Below are positions 861 to 60,560 of a stretch of DNA of 64,000 nucleotides, one piece after another; position 1 is the first letter of the stretch, and every line of letters begins with the position of its first letter. Below the pieces are notes generated by a model. It did not search any database, was not told where the DNA came from, and saw nothing but the letters and a program-made list of their open reading frames with translations. Origin of the DNA: Verpa conica (taxonomy: Eukaryota; Ascomycota; Pezizomycetes; Pezizales; Morchellaceae); contig JAUFSD010000019.1 in assembly GCA_033030425.1 (NCBI GenBank), forward strand, positions 124,001-188,000, given 5' to 3'. Position numbers and translations under genes: made by a program.

Positions 861-2658
861 CTAATAGAATATAAAATCAAAAACCCATGCCTTTAAGGCA
901 AAGATAATGGGAGTTCCTACCTCCCAACCCGCAACAATACTAGTAATAGCTAGGGTAGGTTTCTCAAGGCTCCCATAAATCAGATACGGGATTATTACTC
1001 TGTCACAAATTACTCTTTCCAAGTTCTTGTTACCCACATATGGGCTCTGCACGATAAAATCCTGTAGATTCTCCTTGGTGGCATCTTTTTGGGATAGCTC
1101 AAGATTAGCAAACCCAGCGCTCACTATCCCCTTAGGTCTGGCAAATGTATAAATCTCTGCAACATTACTTAGGAACTTTCCAAGGTCCCTCATGTGGTTG
1201 TCATCAATTTTCATAGAGGGGCCGTCATCTACCCATCATATATTAGTACTACAGAACACCGACACAAGAGTATACGAGAAATAAAAGGTACATACCAATG
1301 ATTACTATAAGATCATAAAGAATTAATATTATCAAATCCATTGCAATATCCTTCGGACAACCGATATCTTGCAACATCGTAATCATATTTGCAGCTCTTT
1401 CGACATAAGATTCATGCAGGGCACGAGGGAAGAACTCTTTTAGGAGCGGATTTTCCTCGATAAACTTTGTTAAACGGTCATTGCATGTACCCATCGTGAT
1501 CCATAGGCTGTTTAAAGCATCTGCCGCAGTCATCCGGGATTGAGGATCTGCAGCTAAGAGCTTCTTCACAAATTCAATCCCACTCCTGCTCACTCGAGCC
1601 TTCTCTAAACTTCCCGTAGGAAACTCTACTCTTCCATTGCAATAGTCACGCATAAGCTCCATATCTGGCACATCCACCCAGTCCGAGGTATTATCACTAG
1701 GTGGTTCAACACCAGTCTCGGAGGGATCGTCATCCAAAAATGTTTCAAGGAATGGTATCTCCAAGGTCAGTATTTCATGTACTAACGCGCCCAAAGACCA
1801 CAAGTCCACGGCATTCGTGTATGACATTGGCTTTTCACCCCTACGTCTTGGGCGACGAGGTAGGAGCCCTTGTAGTTCCGGTGCCTTGTAGTTTGTGGTA
1901 CCGCAGTTTGTTCGCAGATTTGTATTCTGTTCGCTCTTCGATAATCCAAAATCGGTAATCTTGACCCATATTGGTGAGATACCGGCGATTAGAACGTTCT
2001 AAGCATAGACCATCTTAGCATGTGGGCCGGTGCGGTTGGGGAAGAATATCTTGGCCCAAAACAGGGGGTCAGACCTGCGGTTTTAGATCCCGATGACATA
2101 TATTCTGGCCATGCATGACTACAAGCCCCTCTAGCAGCTGTCTAGTGATTTCTTTAGCCTGCTGCTTCGCTTTCGCACCAAAGTCCTTAAGGTACGTGCT
2201 CAAGTCGCCGTGTTGGATATATTCCATCGTGAGGAATACAAAGTCCTCGTTATCATACCAACCGAGAAACTCCACAAACGATTTCGGGTGCTTATCTGCA
2301 GTTAGCCTCGTACCGTAAACCACATAACCAACACACTATTACTTGCCTTCTTCAGCTTTACAAACGTACTTAATTCCCGGGAGAAATCAACCCTATTGGC
2401 AGCCAACATATCTCGGCTTAGTTTTTTGACAGCCCTCAGTTGTCCGTTTTCATCTTCCTGCCGCAGAACGACCCCAAACCCCCCAGAGCCAATCTTGTCC
2501 CCCAATGTCCACCTCGTTTCAATCCCAGCTTTCGCACCCGACTCCTCCGTCGCTGGTTCCGACTCCGACTCCGATTCGTACGTTGTATGAATTACATGGT
2601 CGGTACAGAATCTTGTCTCTAGCCGGTACTGATCGAGGCTCGGATATTTGGTTGCCAT
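861..2658 (-). CDS. Active Ser/Thr-type protein kinase with hydrophobic C-terminal extension
   Basis: Four exons join in phase: 2658-2343, 2295-2075, 1998-1296 and 1228-861, giving about 535 residues. The kinase domain is complete. It has a Gly-rich loop GSGGFGVV (residues 57-64), the ATP-binding Lys in RAVKKL (Lys78), the catalytic loop HRDLKPQ followed by N (173-180), DFG (195-197), an APE-like YKAPE, and the Asp of DLWSLG. All key residues are present, so it should be catalytically active. A Ser/Glu-rich stretch (28-40) precedes the domain. After the kinase fold comes a region with runs of Ile, Leu and Val (IAMDLIILILYDLIVII) and a last exon I do not recognise. It is head-to-head with a paralogous kinase-ankyrin gene at 3149, and both share a start like 'D-x-Y-x-LET-x-F' plus introns in the same two places. 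The substrate is unknown. The last exon is placed by splice phase only. Confidence 0.85.
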
Positions 2659-3148
2659 GACAGTTGGTTGGGGTTGCAGTAGTGCCGGTGGAACAGGAAG
2701 AGGGGTATTTACTCAGCACCAGTTGATAGCCAGTTGAGCCTCCTAGAACAGGCTACCAAGCGGATGTGCCGCTATCGAGAAAGGAAAGTGGGAGGGAACA
2801 AGTTAAAGAAGTATACTAACACAGCAGTGGTACTGATTGATTGTGCAAGGTAACACACGAAGGGTACGGTCCTCGGGCTCCCGCAAGGATAATCCCTATG
2901 AGGGTTCTTTAGACCAAACGACTCTATGGAGCAACATCAATCGATCTTGATTGACTATCCAATCAGACAGATGAACCCCTCCAGAAACAAACCCTAACCC
3001 GTTCCAAAGACGATTGCTACGAAGCGATCGCCCCCGCCTAGGAACATAGTATCTCAACAACACACGCCCCGGATCCCCCCCCCACTTAGGAATACACTAT
3101 CTCAATAACACACACACCGAGTAGCGCCGATCCCACACTACGACTAGG
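2659..3148. promoter_or_regulatory. Shared divergent promoter region of the two kinase genes
   Basis: These 490 bp separate the start codons of two divergently read paralogous kinases and must hold both promoters. Next to the plus-strand start lies an imperfect direct repeat with a period of about 48 bp (3037-3072 and 3085-3120, core TATCTCAA followed by ACACAC). A GC-AT mixed tract and an AACCCTAACCC-type motif lie at about 2990. No specific factor site can be named. Confidence 0.5.
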
Positions 3149-6034
3149 ATGGCCCCAACGCGGAATTTTGATGACTACAAGCTGGAGACGGCCTTTCAAG
3201 ATAATTGTGTGGTACATACAACGGATAAGTTGTGGAAGTCGACATGGAGGCAGGAGGGAAAGATTGGCAGCGGTGGGTTTGGTAGCGTCTGGCTGCAGAA
3301 GGGGCAAGGGGGGGAATTGAGGGCAGTCAAAGAACTACGTCGAGATTCATTGCCAAAGGGAGGTTTTTCCCAGGAGGTACTAGCTTTGATTGAACTTAAA
3401 GATGTAAGCCCCCAAATATCTGAATTAAAGCGACATACTAACAGGTTTTAGTACGGCAATCTTTTCGTAAACTTCTTTGGTTGGTATGAGGACAGGGACT
3501 ACATATTTCTTGCAATGGAGTATATCAAGCATGGGGACCTGCATAAATACATGTCCGAAAATCCCGAAAAGGCAAAGTCAGAAGCCCAAGCTATTACCAG
3601 ACAGGTCTTAGAGGGACTTGAGGTCCTTCACAAGAAGATGATCTGTCATCGCGACTTAAAGCCGCAGGTTAGCCCCAAACACCCAAAAATCGTGTCTTTG
3701 ACACTAGGTCTTGTCGCAATATTCTAACAGAAATGATTACAGAATATTCTTATCGCCAATTTTGACCCAATTCACGTCAAAATCGCCGACTTTGGCGTAG
3801 CGAAAGAAACAAAAAACACGACAGCGCGAACTGCTTGGGCGAGTAACGGTTATTGCGCTCCCGAAATACTCGGAATACGTCTCCCAGGCCCCAAGAAGGT
3901 TAAGGGACGTAAGCTCAGCTACGCTTTGGACATATGGTCATTGGGCGCTCTAGTACACAAGCTCTTGACTTTCCAAACACCTTTCAGCTTCACCGATATA
4001 GAATCCGGCTCAGAGACAGGCGTGGTGGTGGAGGAGCCGGGGGATACAACCGACATAGGCTCTCTTCATGGCTATTGTCAAGGCAATATTGAATTTCCAG
4101 TCTTGGTTTTGAAAGAATCTCAAGTGGATGAAGTAGGAATAGCTTTCGTCAAAAGCCTGCTGGTTCCAAATCCTTCAGAACGACCGACTGCAACTAGCCT
4201 TCTGCAAAGTCCATGGCTCTTGAAACCGACTGCAACTAGTCTTCTGCAAAGTCCATGGCTCTTGAAACCAACTACAACTACCCTCCCCCGAGACCCACTG
4301 CTTCTAGAAACCTTAGCGAAGATTCGGGACCCAGTCTTTTCGGTTCAGGACCTCAGATCGATAGATTCTTCGACTCTAGGGAAACTATTCCAACTAGTAG
4401 TCGGGGAGCCTAACACGATAGATATGCTCCTAGATAAGAAGATTCATATCGGTGCTTGCATTGATAACCAGTCGGTACTGCAGTGGGCGTGCAAGGCCGG
4501 GCACACCGATATGGTTATACTACTCCTGAGAGACGAACCCAGTGTTAGCCACAGCACCAACTACCAGAAAGCTTTTCAAGAGGCTACCAAATCAGGGCAT
4601 ATCGATATAGTGAGGGTATTCCTGAGCCTGAAAAGCAAAAACACTGCTATGACAGGTTCCGTGGACCTTGATAGAGCATTAGGTATTGCGGCTGGGGGTG
4701 GGCACATCGAAATTGTCAAGCTACTCCTGGAAAACAAGGCCGACGTGAATGCTGATGCAGCCAGATTTGACGGTCGAACAGCCTTGCAAGCAGCGGCTGG
4801 AGGCGGGCACATCGACACTGTCAAGCTACTCCTGGAAAACAAGGCCGACGTGAATGCTGCAGCCTCTGATGATCATGGTCGAACAGCCTTGCAAGCAGCG
4901 GCTGGAGGCGGGCACATCGACACTGTCAAGCTACTCCTGGAAAACAAGGCCGACGTGAATGCTGCAGCCACCTATGGCGGTGGTCGAACAGCCTTGCAAG
5001 CAGCGGCTGGAGGCGGGCACATCGACACTGTCAAGCTACTCCTGGAAAACAAGGCCGACGTGAATGCTAAAGCAGCCACCTATGGCGGTGGTCGAACAGC
5101 CTTGCAAGCAGCGGCTGGAGGCGGGCACATCGACACTGTCAAGCTACTCCTGGAAAACAAGGCCGACGTGAATGCTGCAGCCTCTGATGATCATGGTCGA
5201 ACAGCCTTGCAAGCAGCGGCTGGAGGCGGGCACATCGACACTGTCAAGCTACTCCTGGAAAACAAGGCCGACGTGAATGCTAAAGCAGCCACCTATGGCG
5301 GTGGTCGAACAGCCTTGCAAGCAGCGGCTGGAGGCGGGCACATCGACACTGTCAAGCTACTCCTGGAAAACAAGGCCGACGTGAATGCTAAAGCAGCCAC
5401 CTATGGCGGTGGTCGAACAGCCTTGCAAGCAGCGGCTGGAGGCGGGCACATCGACACTGTCAAGCTACTCCTGGAAAACAAGGCCGACGTGAATGCTGCA
5501 GCCACCTATGGCGGTGGTCGAACAGCCTTGCAAGCAGCGGCTGGAGGCGGGCACATCGACACTGTCAAGCTACTCCTGGAAAACAAGGCCGACGTGAATG
5601 CTAAAGCAGCCACCTATGGCGGTGGTCGAACAGCCTTGCAAGCAGCGGCTGGAGGCGGGCACATCGACACTGTCAAGCTACTCCTGGAAAACAAGGCCGA
5701 CGTGAATGCTGCAGCCTCTGATGATCATGGTCGAACAGCCTTGCAAGCAGCGGCTGGAGGCGGGCACATCGACACTGTCAAGCTACTCCTGGAAAACAAG
5801 GCCGACGTGAATGCTGCAGCCACCTATGGCGGTGGTCGAACAGCCTTGCAAGCAGCGGCTGGAGGCGGGCACATCGACACTGTCAAGCTACTCCTGGAAA
5901 ACAAGGCCGACGTGAATGCTAAAGCAGCCACCTATGGCGGTGGTCGAACAGCCTTGCAAGCAGCGGCTGGAGGCGGGCACATCGAAATTATCAAGATTTT
6001 AGAGAACAAGATTTTAGAAGAACAAATCGTTTAG
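3149..6034 (+). CDS. Protein kinase fused to near-identical ankyrin repeats
   Basis: Exons 3149-3403, 3452-3667 and 3743-6034 join in phase 0, giving about 920 residues. The N-terminal half is a complete kinase: GSGGFGSV loop (40-47), Lys61 in RAVKEL, HRDLKPQN (151-158), DFG (173-175), YCAPE and DIWSLG. All catalytic residues are kept. A 14-residue stretch at the end of the kinase C-lobe (PTATSLLQSPWLLK) is tandemly duplicated. Degenerate ankyrin repeats begin near residue 400. From about residue 469 come a slightly divergent repeat, then copies of a 35/36-residue unit with the ankyrin signature GHIDTVKLLLENKADVNA and almost no differences, closed by a degenerate half repeat. Ankyrin arrays bind proteins, so the likely role is a kinase receptor whose ligand face is the array. 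The substrate and ligand are unknown. Repeat number may vary between strains, and assembly collapse could hide more copies. Confidence 0.92.
4186..4269 (+). repeat. 42-bp tandem duplication in the kinase-ankyrin gene
   Basis: Two adjacent 42-bp copies encode PTATSLLQSPWLLK twice, at the end of the kinase C-lobe, with one silent C/T difference. A third, degenerate start (PTTTT) follows. The frame is kept, so the duplication only lengthens the linker between kinase and ankyrin array. Confidence 0.85.
4689..5996 (+). repeat. Coding tandem array of 105/108-bp ankyrin units
   Basis: The first unit (about 4689-4788) carries a few changes. From 4789 the unit starting GCAGCGGCTGGAGGCGGGCA recurs about 12 times with essentially no synonymous differences. 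Units are 105 bp, or 108 bp where an extra Lys codon is present. The only variable part is a block of 7-8 residues, which reads AASDDHG, AATYGGG or KAATYGGG. The order SDDHG, TYGGG, K-TYGGG occurs near the start of the array and again near its end. Identity at silent sites points to recent unequal crossover or gene conversion. Confidence 0.95.
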
Positions 6035-8978
6035 CCCCGCCATAGAGAGGGTAGGTGTTGCCAACAATCCCTACAGATATTTGGTGTCTCTGCTGAACTA
6101 TAGACAAGATACTTCCACGCCTTCAAAACCACATATCCCTTTTCCCCCACGACCCTCCCCTCTCGGCCCTCGAGTTTTGTGGTAGTTTATTCTTTTCAAC
6201 AGACCTCCATAAAATTACCAGGGATCTACCTTCAGGTCGTAATTTTCGTGACAGTAGCTTTAGGAATGATTACTTGATTTAGAACTGTTTTTCTCTTTTT
6301 CCTGTCTTTTCACCCTTGGCCTCTTTTTCAGTTTGCATTTATCTCTCCTACTCTTGTTCTATAGCTGTACTTTTGCTATGTCATCCCACGGCACTGTCCT
6401 TTTTTTGTCTTGGTAAATTCTGTTAAGCACTCGTTTCATAAAATCTGTCAATGTTATTTATTTAGTAATTAGTATCAAGCTCACCTTCATCACTGTCTAC
6501 CAATTGCCCAACACTTTTACTCATTCCTTCGATAAGTTCGATGGTTAGTACAACACTTGTTATACCTGTGGCTGATTGACCCTAGAGATTTAGTAACATA
6601 CGGAAAACTATGTGCACCCGCTAAAGCTAAAATTATGTAGCTTTCTAGATCACTATCTTTAGGTGAAAGTTAGTGAAAATGATAAAAATCATTATTTTCA
6701 TTTGATAGTGTACAATCTACCAGTATAGAACCCGGAGATACCTTGGGTGGTAGTAGATTTTAGTGCCCCAGAACGGAAGATACCTTGTATTTGTGGTAAA
6801 AACTGCTGAATCGATTGTCTAAGGGAGATAGAGAAATATATCGGTATATGCTCCAAAAGAGAGAACCCTAAACCCTAATATGGGATGCCTTGCCTAAGCA
6901 TAGTTTATCTGTACCTTATTTGATAATGTTAGCTTTAGTATAAGAGGAAGAAGGTTAGCGGAGGGCCCAGGGCGTAGACCTTGCCTGAGCTACCAGGGAT
7001 CATACTTCTGCTCGCTACGCTATAAAGAGTCCTCAAGATTGTATCCACGCCTTATATACTCATTTACGTCTCGGAGGGCATGTGAGTATCTATGGATCAT
7101 TATACAACTCAGTTGTATAGGTATCTATATACATAAATTTTGAATCAAACGATTACACTAGCAGTTAGGCTAGTAAGTGTACTAGTAGTACTTGATAACA
7201 GGTGTCGTCAAAAGGACTACACTACAAGAAGGGGCTCACCCCTCCTTATTCTTTCTTTTTCTTCTTAGTCGGTAATTATACAATTTACATATTTCCGCTC
7301 CAACAATAAATAGATATATACATGTAATTCTAATAATCAGCAGGCAAGTGGCGAGGCAATAAATAATTGGTTCCATTGGTAGTAGTTAGGAAATGAATTA
7401 AGCTAGCGCTGTAGGGTTAAGAGTTCGTACTGTGGCTGCTTCAGTTCAATACTAGGAAGCTTGGGGTAACCGATGACGGAGGTTACAAGCAATCTAGCTA
7501 CTTATCTATCTGCCAGCGTATACCACCTAGCGTGCTCCACCAGTACCTCCATTCTATCCCATAACCCGGCAAAGCTGCCCCTTTTCCATGGTGCCAAATT
7601 CTGTGGTTAGGCTCAAGCTTCTGCTTTTTTTCGTAGGCTGCTATACGTTAAGCAGCCACCACTTTGGGGGCAGCATTTTTCGCCGGGTTATGGGATAGGT
7701 AGGATACTTTAGGGGTTACTCTTTACTGACCACTAAGCCCTTCCTAATCAGTGCTTTAAAATTTCCTTGGTAGTACTCTATAAGAGATAACGCCCTTCGT
7801 TAATGGTTTCCGGGGAAGAAGATAGGTTTCGCTATGATAAAGAATAGGTATATCCCAATCTGCATCCAGGGTACTTGGAGAGATATTATTTCTCCACAAC
7901 AGACTCACCTAACTCTTAGCGCATTAGAATATAGGTTCTTCGTTCTACCGGAGAAATTTGACATTACAGAGAGCTACCAACATAGCGTCAAAGCTCAACA
8001 TTGTGCCAACCACCAATGCCCTCTCTGTAGCTACCGGCATTACTATTATTAACAGTAACAATGATATACTTACACAATCGATTATAGGCTACATACAAGT
8101 CTTTGGGTTACTTCCCTATGACTTTTGTAATTTCTTTAAACTCTTTACTAATATAGAGAACACTGACGCCATTGATTATAACTTTTGCGTACGTCTCACG
8201 TTATTATTTTGCTTTGACTTACACGCTACATGTGGCTATACCCCGTGTAATTCTTCTTAAGGCGAGATTTGGCATGTATGATATTATATTTTTCCCCTCC
8301 GTTTGCGCCCTTCTCTCCCTCTCCCCCTACACCTACCCTTTACCTTTATTATAATTAAATTCACACAAAGAACTCTTCGAGTTCACCATTAGTTAGTATT
8401 TAGACCCTTAGAGCCCGATGCATTTTTACCAGCTTCCGCTTATATACTACAGAAAATGTGGTTCTCGCGGGAAATTAACTCTAGGGCTATTAGTAGGAGT
8501 TTAATACTATAAAGCATTTATCAACTAAAGTAAAGGATATTTTGCGCCAAGCCACCGGCCTACTCACGGTGCCAGGCTTAATATCGGTGTGGCGGGGATC
8601 GACATTCTTTTAAGGTGTGAATCTCCAATAACCCTAGTAAATACACCACGAGCGCAATTACATTTCTCCGTAATCGGGTACGTGACAATAAAAATCTCGA
8701 GGTTTCGGTCGTATTCGCAACACCTTCAGTGCGCACCAGCGCATCAGGTCTTAGGCAACTACTCTAGGCAGACCTGTCCAGCCTCACTGCGCGGCGCAGT
8801 TTGAGTCCATCCTCTCCAATCATGCATTGACTTGTGAAACCCCGCTTTCCAACACCCCCTCCCCTTCTACATCCAATCTTGTACAATGAACAATCGCAAC
8901 ATGCGCTCCCAACTGCTAATACACCAAACTCGAATGCACAAAGGGAGTTCTTGAATCTTTGAGTCTTTTTTGGATAAA
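6035..8978. other. Spacer between kinase-ankyrin and HeLo-pseudokinase genes
   Basis: About 2.9 kb of AT-rich sequence without a recognisable gene. It contains one miniature inverted-repeat element (listed separately), a short AACCCTAAACCCTAA motif near 6864-6878, and otherwise only short unconvincing reading frames. Confidence 0.6.
7557..7695. mobile_element. MITE-like element with TA flanks (139 bp)
   Basis: The ends are inverted repeats: TCCCATAACCCGGC at the left and its complement GCCGGGTTATGGGA at the right. A second matched block (GCTGCCCC / GGGGCAGC) follows inside each arm. Both ends are bordered by TA, as expected for the target duplication of Tc1/mariner-type transposons. There is no coding capacity, so it would depend on a transposase elsewhere. 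Confidence 0.75.
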
Positions 8979-10776
8979 ATGGCAGAAATGGCAGGACTAG
9001 TACTGGCTGTCCCCGGCATAGTTGATCTTTGCATCAAGTAAGGCTGAACCATGGCGCGTGTCTAGCTAACGGCTAACAGTTGGGTCTTGTAGGTACGGAC
9101 AGTCTTTAGTGCGAAAGTACCAAAGTTATAAAAACTTTGAAGAAGAGCTGGGGGAACTTGTTGTGAAGTTCGAGGCTCACTGGGTCAACCTGGAAGGGCA
9201 GATCAGCTTTTTTGCGAAGGTCGAGGACCGTGTCGAGGAACGTCAGCGAGTCGTCTTCGACAAGCTGGTCACCGCACTATACAACAAGCTTAAACAAATA
9301 AGCATACAAATCGAGGGTGTCTCCGCTCATGTTAAGAAGATATTCCGGCGAGCGAAGTTCGCCATGCTTGCCAAAAGGTTGCTTAAAGATGCAATCTCCG
9401 AATTAACGGAATGGCAAAACCTTATCCAACCGATAATCTTCCACCTAACACAAACAGCTGATCCTGTTGCTGATCAGAGAATTAAGGATGAGCCAGGAGA
9501 GTCTAATACAGCGATATCAACCGTGCAAAACATGAGGCGGGCCTTCAGTTCAGCAAAACCTCCCGCGAAAGAGCTTGTTGTTTTCCCCACAGACAATAAC
9601 TATTGGAATTCCGACCTCAGGCAGCTTATCAGATACACCTCCATTCAAATCCACAGAATCCCAGGCTATAATGGGCGGCAGCTTCTCATTGACACAATTC
9701 CCTGCGATGGGCGTGATCCTGCTGTGAGGCGTACTATCCGAGATATTCGAGAATTGGTCCAGGTCCTTCGCTTAGTCGACCCCATGACTTTCGGTATCCC
9801 CGTTTGCGCAGGAATCGTCAATATAAAAGACCCTAAAGGAACACTGAGCGGAATTGAGATGGTATTTAATGTGCCCGGGGGTCTGGTGAAGCCGCGGTCC
9901 TTGCGAGATATTCTTCTTTCCCCAGAAAACGCAGATGACCCCATCAACGTGAGAGTCCAACTTGCCAAACGACTTGCGAGAACCGTCTCGTTTGTTCATT
10001 CTAGCAAATTCGTTCACAAAAATTTCCGCCCTGAGACTATAGTTATTTTCGAATCGCGTGGTCAGTCGAGCGACCAAAGTTTCGCCAACGAGGTTGGATT
10101 CCCTTTTCTTGTCGGCTTCCAACGATTCCGCTCGGCAGCCGGGGGTCATACGACAATGATGGGAGATACGGCGTGGGAAAAAAATATTTATCGGCACCCA
10201 GACCGCCAAGGAGAGTTCCCGGAGGAGGTATATAAAATGGAACATGACATCTATAGCCTCGGCGTTTGTCTTCTGGAAATTGCTCTCTGGAAATCGTTCG
10301 TAATTTATGACGACAAGGGTCTTGCGTATAGGTCGGCTGAATCCGAATGCTTCAAGAACATGCCTGGGCGCCAGGTGAAGGATATGCTTGTGAAGATGGC
10401 TCGGGAGGTCATACCGAAAAAACTAGGGAACAGGTATGCCGAGGTGACTATTTCATGTTTGAGGTGCCTAGATGACGGCGACGACGACGACGACCATTGT
10501 GATCTTCTAGACGAGGAAGGAATATCTATCGGTGTCGGTTATATTGAAAAAGTAGGTGTAACAAAACCCGTGTATTGGGAATATATGCTAACGAGACCAG
10601 ATATTAGGGAAACTGGAGGAGATAACCGTGTAATTTTCGGGAATGGAACTTCCCCTAGAGTAAGACATAGGCTCTACCGGGTAATTCCTCAAGTATTGAT
10701 GGTATTTGGAACGTTTAGTTGCCTTTTTCTCCTTAGTCTACTTCTGGTTAAACATGAGCAAGACCCCTATTTCTGA
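8979..10776 (+). CDS. HeLo-like domain and pseudokinase protein with C-terminal membrane segment (MLKL-like)
   Basis: Exon 1 is 8979-9037 and exon 2 is 9093-10776. The 55-bp intron (GTAAGG, branch CTAAC, acceptor TTGTAG) restores GLVLAVPGIVDLCIKYGQS, the typical first helix of fungal HeLo-like death domains. The protein has about 580 residues. An all-helical N-terminal domain spans about 1-160, then a linker, then a kinase fold at about 210-530. The catalytic loop reads VHKNFRPETI (327-336), so the HRD Asp is replaced, and the DFG region reads VGF. A later Asp in HDIYSLG is kept. This is therefore a pseudokinase. A run of five Asp lies near 484, and a hydrophobic segment (about 550-572) ends the protein. 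Family knowledge: HeLo/HeLo-like bundles of HET-S and MLKL permeabilise membranes. That this one does so is inference. A second in-frame ATG at 8988 could also be used. Confidence 0.88.
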
Positions 10777-14969: not shown

Positions 14970-16404
14970 GTCGAATTGTTGTTGGGCTCGTGGGGACTAG
15001 TCTATTGTCGCTAATTTCTAGATGCATCTGTTGCTGCCTTAGACATAGCAAAAAGTCCATAGTGATGATCTTATGCAATCTTGAGCAGAGGGACAGGGCC
15101 CTTTGCAAGTAAAGCCTGTTTGGTTACTTCTTTGTCCGGGGGTATAAATTACTTTCGGTGATGAATCCAGATTATAACCACCTGAAATAGATTAACATGA
15201 TCTGAGCCAAGGGCTGTGACCATCAATTTCTTTGTTGGGCCAGAGGACATGTGACACTCTGTACTGTCATGATTCTCTTGGGGATGTTTTAGATGGAATG
15301 ACTACTCCTGGAGGCCAATTCCTTTGTTTGAGGCTGACGGAATGAAACAAATAAAGCATCAGGTTTGAAGGTCGGGTTAGATTATCGGATTAGATCGAGA
15401 GATCCTACTAGCGTGTAGGCTAGCCTTTGGACAGAAACGGCTGCTGACAGAAACCCTAATCCCATTCCCATTCCCGAGGTCGGCTTATATTTGTATAACT
15501 AAATGCAGCCACAACGGACAAATTTAGGGCCTATAGCCCTTCGGTACCGTAGACAGAGGTATAAATTAAATACCTCTATGAAATTAACACTATCCCAATC
15601 AAGAATCTAGACTATAATTTATATCCAAGTGTGGCGTATTATTATAGCATAACCACTGGCCTTCAGAGATGAGTGATTTCATGTGTTTCTACGACGCAGC
15701 CAATTTATATTTCTTTTTTCATTAAACCCTGTAGTTTCTACTCTTAATCCTATCCCATTAGCCGATCCAAACGGGTACGCATGCTTCATCTAATTCTAGA
15801 AAAATCATTATGAGGTTCCTAGTAGGTATTTGACGAAAGCGGCGATCCTCTCGCAATCCAACAGCTAAGCTAGATCAGGCTAATTAACAAGATTAAGATG
15901 ATAAGAATAGTCAATCGCGTATACTCCTACTACATGTATATAGAAACTTCCAAAGCGTACCAAGATGCAAGGGGGTTTCCCACACGAGGTTTCCCCGCCG
16001 GAAGCGTACAACGTGTATTATGGAATGAAACCCTCTGTTTACATCACAACCATTGCTTCGGTACTTACAGGAACATATAGAAAGTCCTTGAAATTGACAC
16101 CGGAGCAGAACACTCGACTACATGCAGTTCTCTCACAGCCCTTCTATATCCATAACCATTTAAACCTTGTACATTTGGAGCCTTATACACTCTGTAGTCA
16201 TGCGAACCTTTTACATCATTTGAAGTTTCAGAGTTATCTTTAAGCTTTTAGCTTACCTATGGTTGAATTCGGTCTTTGGGTAGGTATGTATAACCCCGCA
16301 ACAAGCTACAGACTACCGGAACCGCCCTATTGTTGTGTATAAGAGTTACAGCTTATCTTTATGTATCTTTACTCAGTCAGATAGAAATCCAGCAGGGAAA
16401 AGAA
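14970..16404. other. Spacer without recognisable gene
   Basis: Nothing here resembles a protein or an RNA gene. It must contain the promoters of the minus-strand Cys-rich gene and of the plus-strand tyrosinase. Confidence 0.5.
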
Positions 16405-17723
16405 ATGCACCTCTTCAAGTCTTTTACAATATTCCTCTTAGCCATTGCGCAAGTCTCAGCGGCACCAGCAGACCACGGGAAACGGCAAAGCTGTACAAAC
16501 AAACTTCAGCGGCGGGCATGGTCTGTATAATTTATTCTCTTTTAGAAAAAATGTTTTTCACTAATGATTACATGTACTTTTACTTCTATCCTAGGCATAC
16601 ATTATCCAGCTCAGAGAAGATTAGCTACCTCAATGCGGAACGATGCCTAATGTTTGGACGCTCTGCATCGACAGGCGCAGAAGGAGCATTCAGTAGATTT
16701 GACGACCTAATCGGGGCGCATCAAAACCAAGCTGGGTGGATCCATAACACCGGATGGTTTCTTCCATGGCATCGGCTTCATATGCGCGCGCATGAGCGCC
16801 TTTTGCGGGAAGAATGCGGCTACACAGGAGCACAACCGTGAGTATTCAGTTATATCCTAATATATGTAGTTTTTTTATATGTAGTTTTTTTTATATATAA
16901 TAAATTCGGCGCTGTCATTTATATGCTGACTTATACCGAAATATAGATATTGGGACGAAGCCCGTGATGCAGGAAGATTTTCTTCTTCTGAGATATTCAA
17001 TTCCCGGGATGGATTCGGCGGTAATGGAGTTGGGGGAGATGATGACCGTTCCGGCTGCATCAGAGATGGTTTACTTCCCTTTTGTTTTCTATAGTTTTTT
17101 CTCCATCTAACTGCGTATAGGCCCCTTTGCAGAGTACATGCTCCACCAAGGCCCTGGGTATTCACACATCGAGCACTGTATCCGTCGTTCAATAAACGAT
17201 GATATCAGCCATGCAACTAACCAGGATTCAATCAATGAATGCTTAAACCAGTCCAACTTTGAGAACGCATGGCCTTGTATAGAGACAAACCCTCATACAG
17301 GAGGTCACAGAGGTATAGGTGGTGTAATGGTAACAGCCCTTTCCCCGCCACCCGAAAATAAGTAACCCCACACTAACAGTAATTCCTACTACTAAAGGAG
17401 GATGCTGTGGCAAGCCCTGGTGGTATGTTTTTCTTCAACCTTTCCTTTTTAAATTTTTTCAGGTGCTAATTATCTGCTCTACAGACCCCCTCTTCTACCT
17501 CCACCACACATTTCTTGACCGTGTCTGGTGGCAATGGCAAGAGCGAGATCTGGCATCTAGGTTATATGATATAGCAGGATCCGTAGCTAGTTCTCAACCG
17601 GATAACGGGTGGGTTCCCGTAACACTGGATGATGAGCTGGATATGCATGGTATCATCCCGAGTGCGAGAATTAGAGATCTGATGGATATTGGTGGGCCCC
17701 TGCTGTGTTATGAATATATATAG
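16405..17723 (+). CDS. Secreted tyrosinase (type-3 copper oxidase)
   Basis: Six exons fit in phase: 16405-16520, 16595-16837, 16947-17068, 17121-17329, 17398-17422 (25 nt) and 17485-17723, giving about 317 residues. The start MHLFKSFTIFLLAIAQVSAA is a signal peptide, followed by a KRQ processing-like site. The CuA region has GAHQNQ, IHNTG and FLPWHRLH. The CuB region has HTGGHRGIGG and, after the 25-nt exon encoding DAVASPG, DPLFYLHHTFLDRVWW. The protein ends GPLLCYEYI. It lacks the long C-terminal lid domain of larger fungal tyrosinases, as in the short secreted class. The expected reaction is oxidation of phenols to o-quinones, in melanin or phenolic chemistry. The exact acceptor before the microexon (17397 or 17400) is open, since either keeps frame. 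Confidence 0.93.
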
Positions 17724-18472: not shown

Positions 18473-21896
<3,424 letters not shown>

Positions 21897-51391: not shown

Positions 51392-52087
51392 TTAGAACGC
51401 TAGACCCTTCATATCCGCTAATGTCCAATACTTCCTCATATTTTCCGCCCCCAACTGCTTCACCTCATCATCCAGATGCTGCCAAAGCACCTCCCCAAAC
51501 AGTTCCATCGTCGCTTTCAGTTCCCTCAACACCAACTCCCTCTCACCGCTCTGGCACTCTTTCAAGTACGCCGTATACTTATCTAAACCGTCATGGATCT
51601 TCCTGTGTTGCGCCAACAGCTCGTCCTGCTTCCTGAAGGCAGGCATTTTCCTTGCGAGTCTTGGAAAAACGTATGATTCTTCAATGGAATGGTGCATTTC
51701 GAGATGAGACGCAAAACGCAATCCAAAAGCGATAAATTCACGAAGTGACATGGATTTGGGTCGTTGATTTGCCTCACAGGCCTTGTAAATTTCATTCCAG
51801 GATAAGCGGAAACCGTTATGCTGGGTTGTTTTTTGGGTTGTTTTTTCCCGGGAATTAGTAACCTCTCGATCCCCTTTTTTTTTTCCCATTCTTCCCCCCC
51901 CCCACCCCCGAAAAAAAAAAATACAAATGAGCGGGAGATTTACGAAATGATCCATGTGTTCCGCTAAAGTATTATATTGCCGGAACTCTGATGCGGTGAG
52001 CTTAGGCAATTGTCCCCCTGGAAAGCCGGCTTCCTCGCCGGTTGCCGAAGTTTCTCCACCTTCGGTTTTTGCTGGTTCCCCCGACAT
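51392..52087 (-). CDS. Hemerythrin (HHE) domain protein
   Basis: Exon 1 is 52087-51944 and exon 2 is 51820-51392. The intron (GTAAAT to CCCAG) joins LAEHMDHF to HNGFRLSWNEIY in phase 0, giving about 190 residues. The four-helix bundle has the metal-ligand pattern: HMDHFHNGFR, HLEMHHSIEE, QHRKIHDGLD and WQHLDDEV. Such domains bind a di-iron centre and oxygen or take part in iron or redox handling. The protein ends AENMRKYWTL, as in many fungal members. The frame stays open upstream of ATG 52087 without a better ATG, so an additional 5' exon (acceptor near 52160) cannot be excluded. It converges with the methyltransferase, with 300 bp between stop codons. Confidence 0.9.
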   Translation of the reverse strand: MSGEPAKTEGGETSATGEEAGFPGGQLPKLTASEFRQYNTLAEHMDHFVNLPLICIFFFRGWGGGRMGKKKGDREVTNSREKTTQKTTQHNGFRLSWNEIYKACEANQRPKSMSLREFIAFGLRFASHLEMHHSIEESYVFPRLARKMPAFRKQDELLAQHRKIHDGLDKYTAYLKECQSGERELVLRELKATMELFGEVLWQHLDDEVKQLGAENMRKYWTLADMKGLAF

Positions 52088-53495
52088 ACTGGATATACCT
52101 TGACCTTGCTGTAGTTTGTATCGACCGTAATGATTTGCGATGCGAGTACTTGGTGCAGCTGTTAGTAAAAAAAAAAAACTATATCTCCCCCTCCCCCCCC
52201 GGATAGGCAATTAAACATAAATAGAAACAAACTGACCTAATCGGATTGATTCCTGAAAGTAGTTTTAATTGGCGAACACCGAAACTCATAGACACGATAG
52301 AGAACTTGAGTATTCGGTGGTGGGGGGGAAAGATCCGCTCTCTTTTAGGTAGTTCTCTATCGGCCGTGACGGGTTTATGTCACGTGACTAACGGGTTTTA
52401 CTAGATTTGTGAGTGTAACAAACCCGGCTCCCTTGATGATTATTGGCTTTTCTGTTCTATGTAAGACATGTCCTGCAACGTTCCTTCCCTTTCTATCATA
52501 GGATATCGCCTCTTGGTAGCTGTATTACGGAGTACAAGCTTATACATCTACAGTATGAAAAAACGGCGTGGATTTACTGCCATAACACTACGGAATTTAG
52601 TCACAAATACCGAATTAAATCAGTATTTAAGGTGGATTACTGCACCAATACCGTATTCCTCCCATATTGCTAGCGTATTGGTGGGAGCACCGTACTGATC
52701 CCACCCCTCTTTTTGGTACTGTATGTAGTGCGTACCGGACTCTTGGATTTTTATAAATATATATAATTAGAACTTTTATATTTCGTGCTTTTAGGGAATT
52801 TTATATCACTGTTTATACGCAGGGATGGAATAGAGCCTTGTTACTATTACTCGATGTATGTGGATCGGGTCTTGGGATTTGTGTAAAGCGATTGTACTTG
52901 GCTTCCTATAATGAGTCTACCTATGATTCATCTTCTGAAGAAAATACGGTCCTTAACTCTAGAAACTAGATTTAAAAGGCTAAAATTAGTGGGCCACAGA
53001 CTGAGGTATTTAGATAAAACCCCTAGCTAGAAATTACCTCTTTATATCTCTCTATAGCACTTCTGGCGACATAATCACAGTCCATCACTCGGTATCCCCA
53101 TTCTATGCCCAGTGTCTTGGCATTTTGTCTTGGCGCTTCCATCTCACATCACCCCCTGAACCGTCCCCGGAACTCAACCAGCACAACAGTACCCCACAAT
53201 CATCATCGCATCATCACATCGCATCGTCACATCGCAGAGATAATACATTAGATGGATGCATTCAACGCTCGGTTCTCTATGGGGATATTGGATTCAAGAA
53301 GGCTTTTTGTATGGACGCGTTCGTTACGCGACGCGACTCACCCCTCATTTCCCAGCCCCTCCTTTATACATCAGCCCTCCCATCTCCCACCTCCCACGTC
53401 CCACCCCCCCCTTCTCTTACATTTCCTCTCCTCTCCTAGGATGAATTCAACTACTCTACCCCCGTCATCACTCATGACACTTGGTGCCCCTCATC
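52088..53495. other. Divergent spacer between hemerythrin and 499-aa protein genes
   Basis: The spacer contains a pyrimidine-rich stretch (53337-53440) just before the plus-strand start, and poly-A/C runs at 52167-52200. No gene is seen. Confidence 0.5.
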
Positions 53496-58415: not shown

Positions 58416-60560
58416 TCAGTTTATGATTCCCGTGCCACCGGTAGCTTTGACCATCTTCGTAAATCCGATACCGCCAGCAGGCTTCTTGACAGTGTAGTTC
58501 TCAATAACAGCGGTTCCGTTTGCGAGAGCATTGAGTTGTTCCTCGTTGCATCTGTTTTTTTCTGTCAGTACTTGAAGGTTCAAGAGTTTAGGGAAAAGCT
58601 TTGGTTCTTACCCCTTGAAGTCGGGAAGATAGCACTGTGGTGCCTCCCCGAAGCCCTCGTTCTTAGTCTTGGTGGTGCTCTTAGCCGGACCCTTGGAGGA
58701 GTAACCATCGAGAGCCTTCTCCTTTCCGGTACCGATATCCATACCGTTATGAGTACGCTCAAAGATACGGAATGAGATTTCAGGCGCATAGGCAGGGACT
58801 TTAAAGAATAATTATTAGTTTAATGAAACTATTAGTCTATGGGGGGGTTGTTATCGACTTACCAGCATGACCAGCTTGGAAAACTCTGCTGAAGCTGAAG
58901 TTACCATATTGGCGGACCTCACCTCCAACCTTTCCGTCACCACCAACAATGTTTGTATAACCGGCGGCAGCAAACTCTTTAGCTTTATTGTACTTGATTC
59001 CCAGACTGACCAACTCTCCACCGAACCAGTTGCAAGCGTGGTCACGGTCTCCGTAGATCATAGCAACCTTGACACCTTTGTCGAGCAAGTAACCAATGTC
59101 TTCCATATACCCAGGGCCGAACCTATCGTTAGAAGAGGTGAAAGCCCTGCTGACAGCGAGTGAAGAAGAGGTATAGTTGACGCGAGCACCCAATTCCCTC
59201 TGAACGTTAGAATCCATGAGATAGCCCTTCCAGAAGATCCAAGGATAACCATCAGTGCTATTGTGAGTGATATCGTATCTGTTTCTGCCCTGAGTCGCCG
59301 CGTACTCGAATTCAGTGACCGGTTGCTGGTCGTGGACAATGCTGCAGACTCCATTGTTTGCTTTATCAATACAGGCTCTTACTGTGCCCTTATCGCCCCA
59401 CGGATCATCCTTCATGAGTTTCTGGCACTCAAGGTAGGCGTCCTTGCAACCCCCGGTCTTCGTGTATTGGTTCAATAAAGTGTTGGCAATGGACTGGTTT
59501 AGGAAGGGGATATCGTAGGTGTTGTTTGAACCAAGTGAGTAGAACCCAGCGTACTGAGTGGGGTAGTCGATGCATCCGGAGACGACACCGAGGGTCTTCA
59601 CCTTGAGCTGGGCTGGCTTCTCGGTCCTGTTCCTGGGCGCCTTGAAGGTGTTGTTTGAAATCACTTCGTTCTTCTTCTCCAAGAATGCGGAGAAACGGGG
59701 TGCGTAGTGACCGCCGTAGCTCTGTCCGTAGATGGAGATCTCGTCGAGTTTCTTGTACTGTGAGAAGGCTTCGGTGAAGCCTTGCATTCCGTACCAGAAG
59801 GCTTGGGCTGCAATGTCTGTGGTGTTGGCAGTGTTGTTAGGGCTCATGGAGGGGAATGTTCCGACAAAGAAAGTCGCGTTGTTTTGCGGGATGTCATTGG
59901 AAGTGAAGTTCTTCAGGGTATCTCTGAAGCCCTTGATGGTGTGGTTGTACTGTCGGGTACCGTTGTTTAAAGTATCATAGGAGAACCCGACTTGATTTGG
60001 CTTTTGGGGGGTTAGAAAGGGTGGCTCTCTATAAAGTATTAGAAGTAACTTACCTGGTCGATAAACAACAAGTTGGTCAACCTGTTCCAGGCAAATTCTC
60101 GCTTTACGGTAGTCTTGGAGTCGTTCTTGACGTCACAAGGTCCGACCTCCTCGAAAAGACCGTTCCTATTAACATATTAGTATATCTGAGTTCCTAGTGC
60201 AGAGAGATCCACTTACATTGATGATGATCCGGGTCCTCCGTTCATCCACACTGTCAATGGGGCATTCTTAGCATCGGTGTGTGCCTCGAAGAACCAAAAG
60301 AAAGTGTTGATGGGGTAGTTCTGATTCGCCTCAAGGGTATTCGGCGGGATCTGAATATATCCAGAGTATGATTCGACGTTCGGGGTCTCTTCACAAATGT
60401 TTGGGTTTCTGTATGAGAGTGAAACACCCGGTACACGTGTAGAGTTGAAGCGAATATCGTCCTTTGCTGCTTGAGGGAATCGTGCAGCACCAGATTTTGT
60501 AAAGATGCTGGTAGCCAGAACAAGGGCAGCCGGAGCTGAATAGCTAAGAAGACCTCTCAT
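58416..60560 (-). CDS. Secreted serine carboxypeptidase, family S10
   Basis: Five exons fit in phase: 60560-60217, 60165-60054, 60000-58863, 58798-58612 and 58551-58416, giving about 638 residues. The start [20 protein letters not shown] is a signal peptide. Conserved parts are [22 protein letters not shown] (oxyanion region), [13 protein letters not shown], the nucleophile Ser in [11 protein letters not shown] (about Ser246), the catalytic Asp in GDRDHACNW (about Asp472) and the His in VFQAGHAVPAYAPE (about His530). The usual Glu before the catalytic Ser (GESYGG) is Gln here. Many NxS/T sites suggest glycosylation. It should remove C-terminal residues from peptides at acid pH, in the vacuole or outside the cell. 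The long C-terminal tail contains repeated Gly/Thr. Confidence 0.95.

What the first reader, a model, noticed from the sequence alone, without database searches (positions are those of the whole stretch)
861..10776. Three kinase-fold genes suggest a RIPK/MLKL-like death or allorecognition module
Within 10 kb there are two active kinases, one fused to a repeat receptor, and a HeLo-like/pseudokinase/membrane protein. In animals the active kinase RIPK3 phosphorylates the pseudokinase MLKL, whose helical bundle then permeabilises membranes. The fungal HeLo and HeLo-like domains are known relatives of that bundle. A kinase with an ankyrin sensor next to a HeLo-like pseudokinase could be a self-contained sensing and killing unit. 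Linkage alone does not prove they act together.
Basis: partly seen in the sequence, partly recalled or inferred. Interest (0 to 1): 0.88.

Follow-up and report, generated by a model that had tools for sequence, protein, structure and literature searches.

The report
Morel kinase and HeLo-pseudokinase gene cluster
A morel-like fungus carries, side by side, two kinases that look active (one with a repeat-built sensor) and a dead kinase joined to a probable membrane-attacking helical bundle, a layout that resembles the human necroptosis pair RIPK3-MLKL, but no activity has been shown.

Summary
Window 861-10633 of a Morchella-like genome encodes three kinase-fold genes: gene 1, an active-type kinase; gene 2, an active-type kinase plus an ankyrin array; gene 3, an N-terminal helical bundle plus a pseudokinase. 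Gene 3's 'membrane' tail is wrong: it is a read-through of a 49-nt intron, and the true C-terminus (ILGKLEEITV) matches the M. snyderi orthologue. Gene 3 belongs to a family seen in many Pezizomycotina. Its catalytic Asp is absent in 98 of 98 aligned homologues, and its pseudo-activation loop carries Ser/Thr at one position in 98 of 98. A confident AlphaFold model of the orthologue shows four long helices, brace helices and a kinase fold. HeLo identity is supported only through intermediates. Gene 2's kinase is Rad53/CAMK-like, not a RIPK by descent. Linkage recurs twice on the same contig: an ankyrin-kinase frame lies next to another family member, and a kinase frame runs into a pseudokinase. 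But 9 of 14 related loci lack a nearby kinase of this family, and without the window the statistics are weak. Best reading: a fungal analogue of kinase-to-MLKL signalling, unproven. HELL-pseudokinases are already mentioned in print, so this is a new variant of a known kind.

The parts
861..2658 (-). Gene 1: active-type Ser/Thr kinase, 4 predicted exons (2658-2343, 2295-2075, 1998-1296, 1228-861), 535 aa, with a C-terminal extension of about 185 aa without Pfam match
   Evidence: Spliced model; Pfam Pkinase 3e-49 over residues 51-346; AVK/HRDLKPQN/DFG positions
3149..6034 (+). Gene 2: active-type kinase with C-terminal ankyrin-repeat array, 3 predicted exons (3149-3403, 3452-3667, 3743-6034), 920 aa
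   Evidence: Spliced model; Pfam Pkinase 2.2e-50 and Ank_2 7.9e-123; nearest solved kinase RAD53
4772..6031 (+). Near-identical ankyrin units: 12 units, of which the first 11 have 87-nt cores identical base for base and differ only in the following linker (KAATYGG x5, AASDDH x3, AATYGG x3)
   Evidence: start
8979..10633 (+). Gene 3: N-terminal helical-bundle plus pseudokinase protein, 3 predicted exons (8979-9037, 9093-10551, 10601-10633), 516 aa
   Evidence: Corrected model; orthologue P0001 73% identical over 516 aligned positions; AlphaFold of P0001
9006..9453 (+). Four long helices (about residues 10-140) of the presumed diverged HeLo/4HB-type bundle; includes intron 9038-9092
   Evidence: AlphaFold helices 10-30, 37-66, 69-102, 106-140 in P0001 mapped by residue number; transitive profile link to HeLo
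9571..10630 (+). Pseudokinase domain (about residues 180-516); HKN at 10015-10023, GFQ at 10114-10122; includes intron 10552-10600
10150..10152 (+). Thr373 codon in the pseudo-activation loop; the aligned position is Thr (90) or Ser (8) in 98 of 98 aligned homologues: candidate phosphosite
10552..10600 (+).

Best explanation
The locus is most likely part of a fungal intracellular nonself or damage response that works like kinase-to-MLKL signalling. Step 1 (inferred): the ankyrin array of gene 2 senses a ligand. Step 2 (inferred): clustering switches on its Rad53-like kinase, with gene 1 as a second kinase or amplifier. Step 3 (inferred): a kinase phosphorylates the invariant Ser/Thr of the pseudo-activation loop of gene 3 (Thr373). 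Step 4 (inferred): this frees the N-terminal HeLo-type bundle, whose hydrophobic first helix attacks the plasma membrane and kills the hyphal cell. Shown here: the predicted gene models, the intact versus dead catalytic motifs, the predicted bundle-plus-pseudokinase fold, the invariant loop Ser/Thr, the repeat array with variation confined to one loop, and recurrence of a kinase next to a (pseudo)kinase partner at other places of the genome.
Against: No functional data. Three of the 5 linked loci belong to one cluster, the one that the finding was picked for; with it removed, 2 of 11 loci at 10 kb (P 0.04) and 1 of 11 at 5 kb (P 0.17). At C13 unrelated open frames lie between the two genes. 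Gene-2-family kinases are numerous (78 loci from a cut list), so most have no HeLo-pseudokinase neighbour. The pseudokinase behind the kinase at C19:121 kb lacks the N-terminal domain and has a frame change; the NACHT and winged-helix pieces at C19:344-349 kb are 3.3 kb apart, and the winged-helix and ankyrin matches there are at or just under their cut-offs. Gene 1's best listed M. sextelata match is 38% identical over half its length (120 of 1315 listed). HeLo is not detected directly, and the N-terminal profile alone finds no MLKL.
Confidence: 0.35

Rival explanations
1. Gene 3 is a HeLo-pseudokinase death or signalling protein, but its activator is not the neighbouring kinases. The pseudokinase itself senses (for example an NLR, a ligand, or another HeLo protein), and the kinases sit there because two rapidly duplicating families share a gene-turnover hotspot.
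For: 9 of 14 pseudokinase loci have no gene-2-family kinase within 10 kb; 78 kinase loci were counted from a cut list, many in tandem on other contigs; linkage without the window cluster is marginal; the gene 3 family is seen in many Pezizomycotina, while close relatives of gene 1 are few in the listed hits.
Against: Two further physically close cases on C19, one of them a possible fusion; a loop Ser/Thr invariant in 98 of 98 pseudokinases hints at kinase control.
Confidence: 0.35
2. The bundle is not a membrane killer; the protein is a scaffold in a kinase pathway (oligomerising helical bundle plus pseudokinase), for example in cell fusion or stress signalling.
For: Direct HeLo tests fail: Pfam 0 of 30 members, hhalign 7% to Pfam-HeLo loci, no MLKL hit with the N-terminal profile alone. 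915 homologues among the scored candidates suggest a broadly kept role.
Against: Transitive HeLo homology is strong; residues 1-19 are the most hydrophobic stretch of the protein; probable HeLo-NLRs exist in the same genome (4 of 11 Pfam-HeLo-only loci have NACHT within 0.6 kb).
Confidence: 0.2
3. Chance neighbours: three unrelated kinase-fold genes in a genome with large kinase families.
For: Kinases are common (162 exon-level Pkinase matches in the genome). Without the window cluster the enrichment is only marginal.
Against: Chance of a gene-2-family kinase within 10 kb is about 3% per locus; 3 of 12 clusters have one (P 0.005, window included).
Confidence: 0.1

Closest known systems
Animal RIPK3-MLKL (necroptosis)
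   Same: Active-type kinase beside a helical-bundle plus brace plus pseudokinase protein; degenerate HRD and DFG; loop Ser/Thr; profile hit to mouse MLKL over both domains.
   Different: Gene 2's kinase is Rad53/CAMK-like, its sensor is an ankyrin array, no RHIM noticed by eye; no Lys among the five commonest residues at any column of the aligned beta-3 strand of the gene 3 family (positions 217-222), whereas MLKL keeps its Lys (recalled); phosphorylation unproven.
Fungal HeLo/HELL proteins and HELL-kinase/pseudokinase proteins (HET-S, HELLP; Fig. 6 legend of PMC12881547, section 20 read)
   Same: N-terminal bundle as probable killer part; [quoted passage not shown]
   Different: Gene 3 fails Pfam HeLo; no amyloid motif noticed by eye (not tested); the neighbour is a repeat-bearing kinase rather than an amyloid-signalling NLR.
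Fungal gasdermin-protease clusters
   Same: Enzyme fused to WD40/ANK/TPR repeats, encoded next to its pore-forming substrate (PMC12881547, section 20).
   Different: Here the enzyme is a kinase and the putative substrate a HeLo-type pseudokinase.
Plant MLKLs and wheat Pm13 (PMC10951266, search listing only)
   Same: MLKL-type protein with an immune role, by title and start of abstract.
   Different: No homology tested here; different kingdom and partner genes.

Membership tests
HeLo domain family (Pfam PF14479) | Match above the curated Pfam cut-off | tested here: not met
   No PF14479 match in gene 3 at E<=1 (uncorrected version) or P0001 at E<=0.1; 0 of 30 homologues at E<=0.05
HeLo superfamily (wider) | Profile homology to HeLo domains, direct or via intermediates | tested here: inconclusive
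   Direct hhalign 7%; via six pseudokinase genes of the same genome 96.3% then 98.6%
MLKL-type protein | N-terminal four-helix bundle, brace, C-terminal pseudokinase | tested here: met
MLKL-type protein | Sequence homology to MLKL over both domains | tested here: inconclusive
   4btf E 1.6e-4 over profile 51-412, last of the 60 rows shown of 867; N-terminal profile alone finds no MLKL
MLKL-type protein | Catalytically dead kinase domain | tested here: met
   HRD Asp absent in 98 of 98 aligned homologues; GF in place of DF. Activity itself not measured
MLKL-type protein | Phosphorylated by a partner kinase and permeabilises membranes | not testable with these tools
   Needs biochemistry
RIP kinase family | Kinase domain of RIPK (TKL) descent | tested here: not met
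   Gene 2: best solved relatives are RAD53 and STK17A, with CAMK types below; no RIPK among 15 hits at E<=1e-20. Gene 1 not tested against the PDB
RIP kinase family | RHIM amyloid motif | not tested
   Only looked for by eye
Fungal NLR | NACHT or NB-ARC domain | tested here: not met
   None in genes 1-3
Fungal recognition-repeat protein | Highly identical repeats with variation at the binding surface | tested here: met
   11 cores 100% identical in DNA, only the linkers differ; cf. PMC4986451 passages. That the linker is the ankyrin finger loop is recalled knowledge of the fold; population variation not tested
Two- or three-gene fungal death cluster | Sensor gene conserved next to effector gene across species | tested here: inconclusive
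   Recurs within this genome; other species seen only by protein names: M. sextelata H6S33_004109 and H6S33_004115 six tags apart

The most novel reading that the evidence does not exclude
Fungi run their own kinase-driven necroptosis: Rad53-like kinases fused to fast-evolving repeats (or to NLRs) are the dedicated activators of HeLo-pseudokinases by phosphorylating an invariant loop Ser/Thr, a kinase counterpart of the protease-repeat/gasdermin pairs, arisen independently of RIPK3.
Probability: 0.28. Interest if true: 0.87.

Novelty: new variant of a known kind. Interest (0 to 1): 0.6.

Why it matters
Some fungal HeLo/HELL effectors are switched by amyloid templating from NLRs (PMC12881547, passages and section 20). 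Whether any are switched by phosphorylation, as MLKL is, I saw no report of in the listings of my searches, and the same review asks for work on how far necroptosis and fungal necroptotic-like death are conserved (section 18). This locus supplies a concrete pair, a candidate phosphosite and closely joined gene arrangements, so the question becomes directly testable. It also suggests where to look for incompatibility loci in morels.

Tried and rejected
Membrane tail of gene 3: rejected as intron read-through. The protein searches were run before this was noticed, on the 580-aa version; P0001 (514 aa) was used for the alignment, fold. First intron of gene 1: a GC-AG border tried broke the frame and was replaced by a GT-AG border. 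RIPK descent of gene 2's kinase: rejected. Direct HeLo membership by Pfam or by profile against HeLo loci: failed. N-terminal profile against the PDB: 27 hits up to E 10, none named MLKL or HET-S. Structural search of the bundle alone: my single-sequence model of window 9091-9579 was poor (pLDDT 63.7), and its Foldseek list (no hit at E<=0.001) says nothing; MLKL was not among the 50 rows shown for the full model, where kinases fill the list. NACHT near HeLo-pseudokinases: PF05729 has no match within 50 kb of the 13 of 14 loci on contigs with any match, and the contig of the 14th (C21) has none; that search also misses the split NACHT at C19:344 kb, seen by eye. C13:1359 kb as a linked case: unrelated open frames lie between, so it is weak. 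Segmental duplication with the second IPK1 gene on C10: the two IPK1 proteins are only 28% identical, so nothing recent. Papers: in the titles and abstract starts listed (one search listed none) I saw no paper on a repeat-bearing kinase next to a HeLo-pseudokinase; the library holds only open-licence PMC papers, and I read passages of PMC12881547, PMC9815663, PMC10197012, PMC9969410 and PMC4986451 and sections 18 and 20 of PMC12881547.
Full report
What is in the sequence. The window is G000:C19:124001-188000, a 45.8-Mb genome in 25 contigs. The closest named homologues of gene 3 are from Morchella, so the source is probably a morel or near relative. Gene 1 (minus strand, 2658 to 861, 4 predicted exons, 535 aa) and gene 2 (plus strand, 3149 to 6034, 3 predicted exons, 920 aa) start 490 bases apart and point away from each other. 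Both match Pkinase far above cut-off (3e-49 and 2.2e-50) and keep AVK, HRDLKPQN and DFG. Gene 3 (plus strand, 8979 to 10633, 3 predicted exons, 516 aa) matches no Pfam model above cut-off; kinase models score 0.02-0.03 and DUF7580 0.007 (on the uncorrected 580-aa version).

Correction of the observation. It begins at a donor site (GTAGGT) after YIEK. Removing 10552-10600, which carries TGCTAAC and ends in AG, gives YIEK-ILGKLEEITV-stop. The orthologue P0001 of M. snyderi ends in YIERILGKLEEITV, and the paralogue at C19:351 kb ends in ILGKLEEISV after a short in-frame stretch at the same place. The membrane protein of the finding is therefore an intron read-through.

The gene 3 family. A search of 5.8 billion proteins (7998 candidates scored) gave 915 homologues at E<=0.001, 120 listed. 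Names among them include Morchella, Wilcoxina, Terfezia, Aspergillus, Penicillium, Talaromyces, Xylaria and lichen fungi, and two Wilcoxina entries are called HET-s/LopB domain protein. I aligned 98 of the 120 listed (A1; I left out 22, choosing by hand). In these 98 the HRD aspartate position is N 94, S 3, G 1; H328 and K329 are invariant; the DFG site reads G 98 and F 96, then E 66 or Q 19. MLKL has GFE there (recalled). The position of Thr373, in the loop that would be the activation segment, is Thr 90 or Ser 8, that is 98 of 98. The loops of ten other genes of the family in this genome printed each contain Ser or Thr (read by eye, not aligned; the pattern did not print every gene).

The sensor. 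Gene 2 ends in an ankyrin array. The first 11 of 12 near-identical units share an 87-nt core with 100% DNA identity, and differ only in a 6-7 residue linker, in three versions. Identity at silent sites points to recent exchange between units. [quoted passage not shown] Gene 2 has no NACHT or NB-ARC domain. Its kinase is closest to RAD53 in the PDB (5e-29); no RIPK is among the 15 hits at E<=1e-20 (gene 1 was not run). Relatives in other fungi carry ANK, WD40 or TPR models.

Linkage. From the listed rows (list cut by the tool) I made 78 gene-2-family kinase loci, and, after merging exons of one gene, 14 pseudokinase loci (the one at C19:120.8 kb lacks the N-terminal domain) and 11 Pfam-HeLo-only loci. 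Five of 14 pseudokinase loci lie within 10 kb of such a kinase (3 within 5 kb, 2 within 3 kb) against 3% expected at 10 kb; 0 of 11 Pfam-HeLo-only loci do. Three of the five are one cluster, the one that was selected. Counting clusters, 3 of 12 (P 0.005); without the window cluster 2 of 11 (P 0.04), and 1 of 11 at 5 kb (P 0.17); the C13 case has other open frames in between. Kinases outside this family were not counted: one lies 2.0 kb from the pseudokinase at C23:233.6 kb and one 2.6 kb from the Pfam-HeLo locus at C3:234.3 kb. The two close cases on C19 weigh more. At C19:120.8-123.2 kb a kinase of this family runs, with 12 nt between stop and ATG or through a plausible intron, into a pseudokinase without a bundle; that pseudokinase has a frame change. 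At C19:343-351 kb, NACHT-like pieces (by eye), a winged-helix match (PF22939, about at its cut-off), an ankyrin stretch (just under cut-off) and a kinase lie in order; ankyrin and kinase share one open frame, though the kinase could also start at an internal Met; a gap of 3.3 kb separates the NACHT and winged-helix parts; and a family member with an open frame of 533 codons begins 1.3 kb after the kinase match. In M. sextelata the protein names H6S33_004109 (family member) and H6S33_004115 (kinase-ankyrin) are six tags apart on contigs of equal length, if tags follow position. Equal contig lengths also suggest a gene-1-type kinase (P0145) on the M. snyderi contig of P0001 and a kinase (P0289) on the Westerdykella contig of P0034; these are weak hints.

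Mechanism and status. I commit to a kinase-to-pseudokinase relay that frees a HeLo-type bundle, with the ankyrin array as sensor (confidence 0.35). The predicted architecture, the dead motifs, the invariant loop Ser/Thr and the repeat signature are shown; sensing, phosphorylation and killing are inferred. The main rival is that gene 3 is a HeLo-pseudokinase effector with another activator and that the linkage reflects two fast-duplicating families.

Known context. The review PMC12881547 (sections 18 and 20 read) says in its Fig. [quoted passage not shown] So the gene 3 type is not new in kind. I saw no paper on a repeat-bearing kinase partner in the listings; one search listed none.

Noticed in passing
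L047:4037-5455 (G000:C19:118.0-119.5 kb, just left of the window): An inositol-pentakisphosphate 2-kinase (IPK1) gene lies between a HeLo-pseudokinase paralogue and the kinase-pseudokinase stretch; the genome has a second, 28% identical copy on C10. A review lists inositol phosphate kinases among MLKL regulators (PMC9969410, passages), so the position is curious but may be chance.
   Followed up: partly
L047:6720-9198 (minus strand): Kinase reading frame leading into a HeLo-less pseudokinase with a Pro/Thr-rich linker; joined by a plausible intron or 12 nt apart; one frame change in the pseudokinase.
   Followed up: partly
L049/L048, G000:C19:343.3-350.6 kb: SesB-like and NACHT-like pieces (by eye), winged-helix, ankyrin and kinase segments in order, with a 3.3-kb gap between the NACHT and winged-helix parts.
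   Followed up: partly
G000:C10:560-608 kb: Dense tandem cluster of gene-2-family kinases, several in frames over 1,000 codons; none of the 14 pseudokinase loci is on C10.
   Followed up: no
window 18476-21010, minus strand: LacZ-type beta-galactosidase with TIM-barrel and small-chain domains (Pfam 1.6e-102 and 1.7e-67); whether it is of horizontal origin was not tested.
   Followed up: no
window 16284-16838 (+), 51395-52210 (-), 58840-60132 (-): Tyrosinase, hemerythrin-domain and serine carboxypeptidase genes: ordinary neighbours.
   Followed up: no
G000:C4:156 kb, C15:1289 kb, C20:251 kb, C20:1035 kb: Four of 11 Pfam-HeLo-only loci have NACHT within 0.6 kb, as expected of all-in-one HeLo-NLRs.
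   Followed up: no
G000:C23:233.6 and 236.1 kb: A pseudokinase family member has a Pkinase gene of another family 2.0 kb away.
   Followed up: no
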